Shown here in pieces: positions 16,500 through 19,400 of a stretch of 64,000 nt of DNA. The first letter of the stretch is position 1, and each line of letters starts with the position of its first letter. Made by a program: the position numbers and the translations under genes. Source of the stretch: Urechis unicinctus (Eukaryota > Annelida > Polychaeta > Xenopneusta > Urechidae); assembly GCA_034190875.2 (NCBI GenBank), contig CM067348.1:40100295-40164294 (forward strand), written 5' to 3'. The notes under the pieces are model-generated. The model had not been told where the DNA came from, ran no database searches, and saw only the letters and a program-made list of their open reading frames with translations.

Positions 16500-19400
16500 T
16501 CATGATATTTGTCCGATCATCGATGGAGAGACCAACTGGTCCCCACTGTGGTCTGACTGTAAACAGCATGGGGCCAAGTCAGTAAGTGTTTGTCACGATA
16601 TGACCAGCGTCTTGCATTGCACAGATACAAATTCAGCACCCAAGGCTTGAAGATGCTCCTATTACCAATGAGGTCAAGGTCGAATGGGACTCAAGTTGAG
16701 TTTGACCTTCTTTGTGATGGGTGAAGTCACATGACCCTGTCACAAGGCAACATACGTAGTATGTAAGGAAATGGTTGAAACATAACATCTTGCTATATAT
16801 ATATATATATATTATCTCCACCAAATGGTAAACAAGCAGGGCATGCAGTCTTACAATTAGCATGGCAAGCTATCTTGCAATACAATGGGAAGGCTAAGTA
16901 CTCCGGTGATAACTACAAGACACCTCACTCTAACAATGCCTGTTGGACATCTTACCGCTTGCCATTTCTGCAGGACTTTCTCATATTCTTGGGCATAGAA
17001 GGCAAACAATTCGTCACAATCCCGCCGCACCATCGTACCTTCACGGTTGTAACGGATACAATTTTCTCTGATTTGCATCATATCTTGATCAAAATCTTCC
17101 CAAGCGGCATAGCTTCCTGACTGTTAGAACAACCAACATACAGCATCAATTAACAACTCACATTTTATGTCATTGAGATGTTGAAGAAAATGAATTATTC
17201 ATCCTACTCAATATGATTTACATACTTCCAGTTTTTTCCTAATAGTTGTGAGATCCATTGGGTGTTTGATCACCGAGTAATAGTCTGGTACTTCAGAAGG
17301 ATCCACTGTCAACCAAACATTTGTGAAGGTGAGAGAGAGCTCCCATGCGTTGATGTTGATTGCATATCTCACCAGAAGGAATGAACTTCATGTGCTACTT
17401 GGATGAGTCTTACCTGGGTGAATGAACCATGTGGAAGCATTCATCTCGCCCTTCTCCTTGTGACTGCCACGGAATCGAGACACACGATGCACCAACCTGC
17501 AGGCACAGACAACATCCTTGATGAATTCAAGACAGCATTCACATCAAACGATTCAAAGCACAGTCATAAAAAGCCCCTCCTCCCTTAACATAATAAAAGA
17601 ATCGTGTGACTATATATATGAGACTAGGGAGGGTCATCATGAGACTAGGGAGGGTCATCATCATGAGACCAGGGAGGGTCATCATGAGATCATGGAGGGG
17701 CATCATGAGACCAGGGAGGGGCATCACCATGATAATAGGGAGGGGCATCGTCATGAGACTAGGGAGGGTCATCATCATGAGACTAGGGAGGGTCATCATC
17801 ATGAGACTAGGGAGGGTCATCATGAGACCAGGGAGGGGCATCACCATGATACTAGGGAGGGTCATCATCATGATACTAGGGAGGGTCATTATCATGAGAC
17901 TAGGGAGGGTCATCATCATGAGACCAGGGAGGGGCATCACCATGATACTACCCAGGGTCATCATCATGAGACTAGGGAGGGTCATCATCATGAGACTAGG
18001 GAGGGTCATCATCATGAGACCAGGGAGGGTCACCATGAGACCAGGGAGGGTCATCATCATGATGCTAGGGAGGGTCATCATCATGAGACCAGGGAGGGTC
18101 ATCATCATGAGAACAGGGAGGGGCATCATGAGACCAGGGAGGGGCATCACCATGATACCAGGGAGGGTCATCATGAGACCAGGGAGGGGTCATCATCATG
18201 AGACCAGGGAGGGTCATCATGAGACCAGGGAGGGTCATCATCATGATACTAGGGAGGGTCATCAACATGAGACCAGGGAGGGTCATCATGAGACCAGGGA
18301 GGGTCATCATGAGACCAGGGAGGGTCATCATCATGATACTAGGGAGGGTCATCAACATGAGACTAGGGAGGGTCATCATCATGATACTAGGCAGGGTCAT
18401 CATCATGAGACTAGGAAGGGTCATCATCATGAGACTAGGGAGGGTCATCATCATGAGACTAAGAAGGGTCATCATGAGACCAGGGAGGGTCATCATCATC
18501 AGACTAGGGAGGGTCATCATCATGAGACTAAGAAGGGTCATCATAAGACTAGGGAGGGTCATCATCATGAGACCAGGGAGGGTCATCATGAGACCAGGGA
18601 GGGGCATCACCATGATACTAGGGAGGGTCATCATCATGAGACTAGGGAGGGTCATCATCATGAGACTAGGGAGGGGCATCATAAAGCTATTGAAGGGCAT
18701 CACGAGACTAGGGGGGTCACTAGGGAGGGGATCATGAGACAAGGGAGGTCACTAGGAAGGGCATCATGATACTAGGTCGGGACATCATGAGAATAGGGAG
18801 TGCATCACAAGACTATTAAGGGGCATCATGAGACTTGAACAATAAGCGAGGACGGGTGTTTAAAGTATTGAGTGCTGTTACAGCGATTAGGGGTATTTTA
18901 TAGCAGCTACTGAGGAAGAGTGTTTTAAGACTCCAGTGTCGAATGCTGCTGTGACTCAAAATGACTCTCATAAGTGACTTACCCGAGCGCAAGGCGGACC
19001 CAGCTGGCAACTGGGGTAGGGGAGAGCACCTGGTCAGGGGTGGGAGGGGCTTTACGCTTCCTCTTGCCCAGTAGCCCCGCCCCATCTCCTGACATTACAT
19101 TACTTCCTGATACACACACACGGGATGATGTTAGAGAACAAGAAAGTACTATACTGTCATTGAAAATAACGTTTACTTTTTCCAATATAGAGGTAAAATT
19201 CACAATAAAAAGGATAATTTTGTGAAATCAACATATAATTCAGGGAGATCTTTACCATGGGGACTTGAGACCACACCCTCTTCACCGCCACTCGCGACAA
19301 ATTCATCAGCTGATGTTTCCAGGCACTGACTGCTATACTCACTGATGTCAAGGTGAGAGGGGTCCATCCCGGTGGACTCAACTTCAACAGCAGCTGCACG

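What the first reader, a model, noticed from the sequence alone, without database searches (positions are those of the whole stretch)
16500..19106. EMSY orthologue that ends in a complete bromodomain
Seen: exons of the EMSY gene downstream of the LDPQTG block keep reading frame through five further junctions into a full bromodomain with PDYY and the IRYN Asn, then a short tail and stop. The 23-exon model sums to 1324 codons with no phase conflict. Helix Z of the bromodomain needs residues from the exon that also carries the [11 protein letters not shown] linker, so the fold crosses the supposed fusion point. Known: vertebrate EMSY has an ENT domain and works with SIN3/KDM5 histone-modifying complexes; I know of no bromodomain in it. 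Inference: here a single protein could both recruit the repressor complex and read acetyl-lysine, and vertebrates may have lost this domain, or this lineage gained it.
Basis: partly seen in the sequence, partly recalled or inferred. Interest (0 to 1): 0.88.

Follow-up and report, generated by a model that had tools for sequence, protein, structure and literature searches.

The report
EMSY gene with a built-in bromodomain
In this animal genome the gene for EMSY, a chromatin repressor linked to cancer in people, appears to carry an extra domain at its end that should recognise acetylated histones, joining two functions that plants and trypanosome parasites are known to keep in separate partner proteins.

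Summary
A 23-exon minus-strand gene (37085-16674) reads without phase conflict into 1,323 residues. Pfam finds two domains: ENT (19-86, 84.5 bits) and bromodomain (1214-1284, 84.4 bits). The N-terminus matches solved human EMSY at 188.6 bits. The bromodomain keeps PDYY (1228-1231) and Asn 1273. The five joins into it have good splice sites. ENT rings once in the genome, the bromodomain exons are single-copy, and no close bromodomain relative lies elsewhere in it.

Weaker points: helix Z in exon 19 rests on amphipathic periodicity only; profile scoring does not support it. Intron 19 holds a 1-kb minisatellite. No RNA and no orthologue from another species could be examined, so gain here versus loss in vertebrates is open. 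Ten paper searches, several with capped lists, showed no report of an EMSY bromodomain.

Papers do show ENT and bromodomain proteins as partners in plants and trypanosomatids. Here the pair is probably fused: a new variant of a known family, most likely giving the SIN3/KDM5/EMSY complex its own acetyl-lysine reader.

The parts
36913..37085 (-). Exon 1: start codon and first part of the ENT domain (aa 1-58)
35648..35722 (-). Exon 2: rest of the ENT domain (aa 58-83)
34026..34201 (-). Exon 3: [16 protein letters not shown] stretch, aligned to human EMSY 2fmm (aa 83-142); its HP1-binding role is recalled
32294..33714 (-). Exons 4-7 of the long middle region without Pfam domains (aa 142-405)
29763..31872 (-). 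Exons 8-11 of the middle region (aa 406-630)
27210..28886 (-). Exons 12-15 of the middle region (aa 631-809)
23267..23337 (-). Exon 16 (aa 809-833)
22422..22961 (-). Exon 17, with the LDPQTG block at aa 878 (aa 833-1013)
19256..19675 (-). Exon 18 (aa 1013-1153); its end lines up weakly with the recalled C-terminus of human EMSY
18983..19106 (-). Exon 19: basic linker [11 protein letters not shown] and the first half of a predicted amphipathic helix (aa 1153-1194)
17414..17496 (-). Exon 20: second half of that helix and the TWF shelf (aa 1194-1222)
17226..17305 (-). Exon 21: PVD and PDYY part of the bromodomain (aa 1222-1248)
16956..17120 (-). Exon 22: rest of the bromodomain, with Asn 1273 (aa 1249-1303)
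16674..16736 (-). Exon 23: basic tail [12 protein letters not shown] and stop codon (aa 1304-1323)
15704..15709 (-). Candidate poly(A) signal ATTAAA downstream of the stop; an AATAAA starts at 15307
   Evidence: motif match only
17618..18682 (.). 24-bp minisatellite, 46 copies, inside intron 19; the weakest place in the assembly of this gene

Best explanation
The window carries the single EMSY gene of an animal, and its full-length protein ends in a functional bromodomain. The conserved N-terminus (ENT and the following stretch) should place the protein in the SIN3-HDAC/KDM5 complex. The long middle is a flexible tether, and the C-terminal bromodomain binds acetylated histone tails. The complex could then dock on acetylated promoter nucleosomes and hold the deacetylase and the H3K4 demethylase at their substrate. 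Shown: gene structure, domain content, binding residues, single copy, presence of SIN3. Inferred: splicing, binding, recruitment.
For: 23 exons, one frame. ENT and bromodomain at 84.5 and 84.4 bits. N-terminus to human EMSY 2fmm at 188.6 bits. PDYY and Asn 1273 align to BRD4 and PBRM1 bromodomains. Good splice sites; intron 18 only 149 bp, with no AATAAA or ATTAAA inside it. One ENT match in the genome. Bromodomain exons single-copy apart from one 38-base chance-sized match. 28 other bromodomain exon hits lie elsewhere, and in the 25 loci that hold them the best match of 45 aa or more is 47% over 51 aa. EMSY in SIN3B/KDM5A complexes and fly SIN3 220. SIN3 present here. ENT and bromodomain proteins work as partners in plants and trypanosomatids.
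Against: No transcript evidence at all. An in-frame ATG sits near the start of exon 19 (residue 1157), so a separate short bromodomain protein is possible. The shelf reads TWF where the usual motif is WPF. Profile scoring gives no support to helix Z in exon 19. Fly EMSY was not needed for SIN3 recruitment to polytene chromosomes, so a recruiting role is not general. No orthologue with the same ending was seen, because no other animal could be searched. The searches for KDM5, HP1 and MRG genes in this genome did not complete.
Confidence: 0.6

Rival explanations
1. Both forms exist: most EMSY protein ends near exon 18, as in vertebrates, and the bromodomain is added in a regulated long isoform. 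Reading through intron 18 gives a short ending.
For: Intron 18 read-through stays open for 17 codons to a stop. The end of exon 18 lines up with the recalled human C-terminus: 1 of 500 shuffles reaches the score against the last 95 residues, a test chosen after seeing the fit. Xenopus has short and long EMSY transcripts (passages).
Against: Against the whole recalled human half, exon 18 is not significant (51 of 300 shuffles). The only poly(A)-like motif in intron 18 is the weak AGTAAA.
Confidence: 0.18
2. The bromodomain exons are a separate small gene just downstream of EMSY, starting at the ATG in exon 19.
For: In-frame ATG at residue 1157, then a basic linker and the bromodomain (sequence, frame).
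Against: A strong in-phase acceptor (best 0.46% of AG sites) directly before exon 19, which a first exon would not need; intron 18 is only 149 bp; no AATAAA or ATTAAA between exon 18 and exon 19.
Confidence: 0.08
3. Assembly error: EMSY and a bromodomain gene were wrongly joined, most likely at the minisatellite in intron 19.
For: 46-copy, 24-bp repeat across 17618-18682; no second copy of the region to confirm the order.
Against: Contig C7 is 49.6 Mb long. The reading phase matches across intron 19, and the amphipathic stretch runs through the junction.
Confidence: 0.05
4. The bromodomain is present in the protein but has lost acetyl-lysine binding and serves only as a structural or protein-binding module.
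For: Unusual TWF shelf and a longer stretch before it (alignment, to recalled sequences).
Against: The Tyr of PDYY and the Asn are kept; Pfam score far above the cut-off. PBRM1 bromodomains also lack WPF (letters).
Confidence: 0.09

Closest known systems
Vertebrate EMSY (C11orf30)
   Same: ENT domain and the stretch after it, similar length (human 1322 aa, Xenopus 1291 aa), the LDPQTG block (human letters recalled).
   Different: No bromodomain is known to me in vertebrate EMSY (recalled); the passages seen name the ENT domain and the BRCA2, HP1-beta and BS69 sites only.
Plant GTE4-EML complex
   Same: An ENT-family protein and a bromodomain protein act together and occupy genes rich in acetylation and H3K4 trimethylation (whole text of a short commentary).
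   Different: Two separate proteins; EMLs are said to read H3K4me3 and bear Agenet/Tudor domains (passages), absent here; GTE4 is of the BET type.
Trypanosomatid complexes with an ENT protein and bromodomain factors (HAT2, Bdf3, BDF5)
   Same: An ENT protein co-purifies with Bdf3 and HAT2 in T. brucei, and one lies near BDF5 in Leishmania (passages).
   Different: Separate proteins, tied to an acetyltransferase, not to SIN3/HDAC.
Classical bromodomains (PBRM1, TAF1, BRD4, GCN5, CBP, BPTF, CECR2)
   Same: Profile match and binding residues.
   Different: This domain groups with none of them: on a 54-column tree its nearest node has support 0.465.

Membership tests
EMSY | N-terminal ENT domain | tested here: met
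   PF03735, 84.5 bits, aa 19-86; the only 3 PDB hits are EMSY chains
EMSY | HP1-binding stretch after ENT | tested here: met
   Aligned through [12 protein letters not shown] to 2fmm; binding itself not tested, the name of the motif is recalled
EMSY | Conserved middle region and LDPQTG block | tested here: inconclusive
   Exons 15-17 against recalled human sequence: 0 of 300 shuffles reach the score, but that alignment puts LDPQTG out of register; the human letters are unverified
EMSY | Membership of the SIN3/KDM5 complex | not testable with these tools
   SIN3 gene present; KDM5, chromoshadow and MRG searches did not complete
Bromodomain | Pfam profile above curated cut-off | tested here: met
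   84.4 bits against a cut-off of 21.7
Bromodomain | Acetyl-lysine Asn and Tyr | tested here: met
   Asn 1273 and PDYY 1228-1231 aligned to solved bromodomains; their role is recalled
Bromodomain | WPF shelf | tested here: not met
   Reads TWF at 1216-1218; PBRM1 bromodomains also lack WPF, so it is not a defining loss
Bromodomain | Helix Z | tested here: inconclusive
   Amphipathic stretch around 1185-1202, but no profile support
BET family | Two bromodomains plus ET domain | tested here: not met
   One bromodomain and no ET domain by Pfam
Plant EML (EMSY-like) | ENT plus Agenet/Tudor | tested here: not met
   No Agenet/Tudor match

The most novel reading that the evidence does not exclude
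ENT plus bromodomain is an ancient functional unit. It is split between partner proteins in plants and trypanosomatids, was fused in EMSY of early animals and is still fused here, and was lost from vertebrate EMSY by truncation at the exon 18/19 boundary. Human EMSY complexes would then either lack an acetyl-lysine reader or have replaced it with a partner not yet recognised.
Probability: 0.35. Interest if true: 0.75.

Novelty: new variant of a known kind. Interest (0 to 1): 0.55.

Why it matters
EMSY is amplified in breast and ovarian cancers (abstracts) and sits in SIN3B/KDM5A complexes, yet how that complex chooses its sites is not settled. A natural version with an acetyl-lysine reader in the same chain gives a direct prediction: the EMSY complex should recognise acetylated nucleosomes before removing acetyl and H3K4 methyl marks. 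It also turns the plant and trypanosomatid observations, in which ENT proteins keep company with bromodomain proteins, into a possible general rule that can be tested, including a search for the missing partner in human cells.

Tried and rejected
Parent bromodomain in the same genome: looked for and not found. Pfam gave 29 bromodomain exon hits (a lower bound), one of them this gene; the other 28 lie in 25 fetched loci (L002-L026). The best match of 45 aa or more is 47% over 51 aa (L004, BET-like); shorter pieces reach 65% over 23 aa (L018). Family assignment by tree: unresolved (12 of the 25 loci and 13 of the 18 recalled human domains, picked by hand; left out were loci whose pieces were short or began mid-domain, such as L014, L018 and L021, and L009 and L023, near-copies of L008 and L006).

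Pairwise scores to 18 recalled human bromodomains: CREBBP 157, BPTF 157 and CECR2 156 tie at the top, so no family is favoured. Recalled human EMSY C-terminal half: exons 15-17 0 of 300 shuffles reach the score, exon 18 51 of 300, exons 19-23 8 of 300. The last is slightly better than chance, although human EMSY has no bromodomain by recall; I take it as noise. Targeted tests: exon 18 tail against the last 95 residues 1 of 500, the same tail against the rest 426 of 500, residues 961-1020 against a human middle piece 93 of 500. Searches of viral contigs (5 pattern matches) and genome contigs (prokaryotes, 331 pattern matches) gave no relative by tblastn. NCBIfam: none. Rfam: none in the window at gathering score. 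Ten paper searches were answered and one failed. Lists were capped: 30 of 43 papers, 20 of 221, 20 of 1,211, 10 of 22, 12 of 15; some searches listed all they found (14, 0, 1, 5, 0). No listed title or abstract start reports an EMSY bromodomain. The 20 papers listed do not contain EMSY, so that search told nothing.

Full report
The gene. On the minus strand of the window, 23 exons from 37085 to 16674 join into 3,972 nt with one stop at the end, giving 1,323 residues; all introns are GT-AG and every phase closes. One optional 27-nt exon (32436-32410, seen by eye) would keep the frame and was left out.

It is EMSY. Residues 10-139 match the human EMSY chain 2fmm at 188.6 bits, and the only PDB hits of the first 176 residues are three EMSY entries. 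Pfam finds ENT (19-86, 84.5 bits) and bromodomain (1214-1284, 84.4 bits) and nothing else at E 0.1. ENT rings once in the 1.19-Gb genome, in exon 1 of this gene, with two candidates scored, so this is probably the only EMSY there. A paper passage says EMSY is also the only known ENT protein in the human proteome (PMC3122151).

The bromodomain. Alone it scores 88.5 bits and hits 413 distinct PDB sequences at E 0.001, of which 60 were shown. PDYY (1228-1231) and the Asn of CIRYN (1273) align with those of BRD4 and PBRM1 domains. The shelf is TWF (1216-1218), not WPF. The Pfam match is split over exons 20-22 and covers profile positions 13-83 of 84. The exon 19/20 junction lies at residue 1194, within a proline-free stretch whose 18-mer at 1185 has the fifth highest helical moment of 1,306. 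That fits helix Z crossing the junction. Against it, a profile of 13 recalled human bromodomains gains nothing from exon 19: 95.6 bits with it, 96.4 without, and all 300 shuffles do as well or better.

Are the two halves one gene? The five introns from exon 18 to exon 23 are 149, 1486, 108, 105 and 219 bp. Their acceptors lie in the best 0.06-0.78% and their donors in the best 0.08-3.7% of such sites on the strand, by a matrix that includes them. Leave-one-out scores for the same sites are 5.6-10.3 bits (donors) and 7.3-11.2 bits (acceptors), within the range of the other introns. GC3 is 0.49 before and 0.51 after the start of exon 19. Intron 18 contains no AATAAA or ATTAAA, only AGTAAA; downstream of the final stop the first such motifs are ATTAAA at 15709 and AATAAA at 15307. 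A separate gene starting at Met 1157 is possible but would not need the strong acceptor just before it. A misjoin is possible at the 46-copy minisatellite in intron 19, but the contig is 49.6 Mb long, the phase matches and the amphipathic pattern continues. Both sides of the minisatellite are single-copy, apart from a 38-base match on another contig, so no second haplotype confirms the order.

Where did the bromodomain come from? Pfam gives 29 bromodomain exon hits genome-wide, a lower bound. In the 25 loci holding the other 28, the closest stretch of 45 aa or more is 47% identical over 51 aa; shorter pieces reach 65% over 23 aa. In a 54-column tree of 12 of those loci, 13 recalled human domains and this one, four own-genome domains pair with a human counterpart at support above 0.9 (BET 0.985, ATAD2 0.967, CBP 0.964, BRPF 0.905). 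Others, like this one, do not; its nearest node has 0.465. So it does not look like a recent copy of a standard bromodomain. This favours an old fusion, but a short alignment and recalled sequences limit the claim.

Gain or loss? The end of exon 18 lines up with the recalled C-terminus of human EMSY (1 of 500 shuffles for the last 95 residues, a test chosen after seeing the fit; 51 of 300 when the whole recalled half is the target). If true, vertebrate EMSY stops where the bromodomain part begins here. No other animal could be examined: the protein database was off, and the collections I could scan hold prokaryotes or viruses.

Function. Mammalian EMSY is found with SIN3B, KDM5A, PHF12, MRG15, GATAD1 and HDAC1/2 (PMC9309374 and PMC6295471, passages). 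Fly EMSY interacts mainly with SIN3 220 and is needed for viability, but is not critical for SIN3 to reach polytene chromosomes (PMC6242963, passages). SIN3 is present in this genome; KDM5, HP1 and MRG searches did not complete. In Arabidopsis the bromodomain protein GTE4 binds the EMSY-like proteins EML1/2, and together they occupy genes rich in acetylation and H3K4me3 (PMC11749275, whole text; the primary paper was not held). In T. brucei an ENT protein co-purifies with Bdf3 in the HAT2 complex (PMC9236257 passages) and is listed with BDF3, BDF5 and HAT2 (PMC8559703 passages). In Leishmania an ENT protein lies near BDF5 (PMC9279504 passages). ENT proteins therefore repeatedly work beside bromodomain proteins. 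Here the two are apparently one protein. I infer that the bromodomain holds the EMSY/SIN3/KDM5 complex on acetylated nucleosomes, where its deacetylase and H3K4 demethylase act.

Verdict. It is a new variant of a known family, not a new kind of system. The join rests on sequence alone. Automated protein databases may already hold such proteins unremarked; that could not be checked. Absence from print rests on ten answered searches, five of them with capped lists, in a library without most subscription papers.

Noticed in passing
24566-26870 (+ strand), in intron 15: Remains of a hAT-type transposon in opposite orientation to EMSY: ORF 26430-26870 matches Dimer_Tnp_hAT at 22.1 bits, while ORFs 25187-26260 and 24566-24880 match no Pfam family. 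A second hAT-like stretch near 20600-21450 in intron 17 was seen by eye only.
   Followed up: partly
13551-14294 (+): 247-aa ORF with DUF3504 (42.2 bits), possibly Crypton-derived (recalled link).
   Followed up: no
55240-55590 and 57682-58014 (-): Exons of an MCM helicase gene (MCM P-loop 121 bits, MCM OB 47 bits); the name MCM7 is my guess from recall.
   Followed up: no
47713-47994 (+): Dyskerin-like exon (DKCLD 38 bits; TruB_N 22 bits, below its cut-off).
   Followed up: no
41467-41940 (+): THAP domain in an ORF (33.9 bits).
   Followed up: no
2096-2527 and 5379-5810 (+): Two identical 143-aa ORFs about 3.3 kb apart, followed by a second pair (2770-3111, 6053-6343) that shares most of its start; looks like a tandem duplication. 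The one ORF scanned, 2770-3111, matches no Pfam family.
   Followed up: no
19406-19496 (-): 18-bp repeat, 5.1 copies, inside coding exon 18 giving GGQVVQ repeats; could vary in length between individuals.
   Followed up: no
32410-32436 (-): Possible 27-nt in-frame micro-exon (9 codons) between exons 6 and 7, seen by eye.
   Followed up: no
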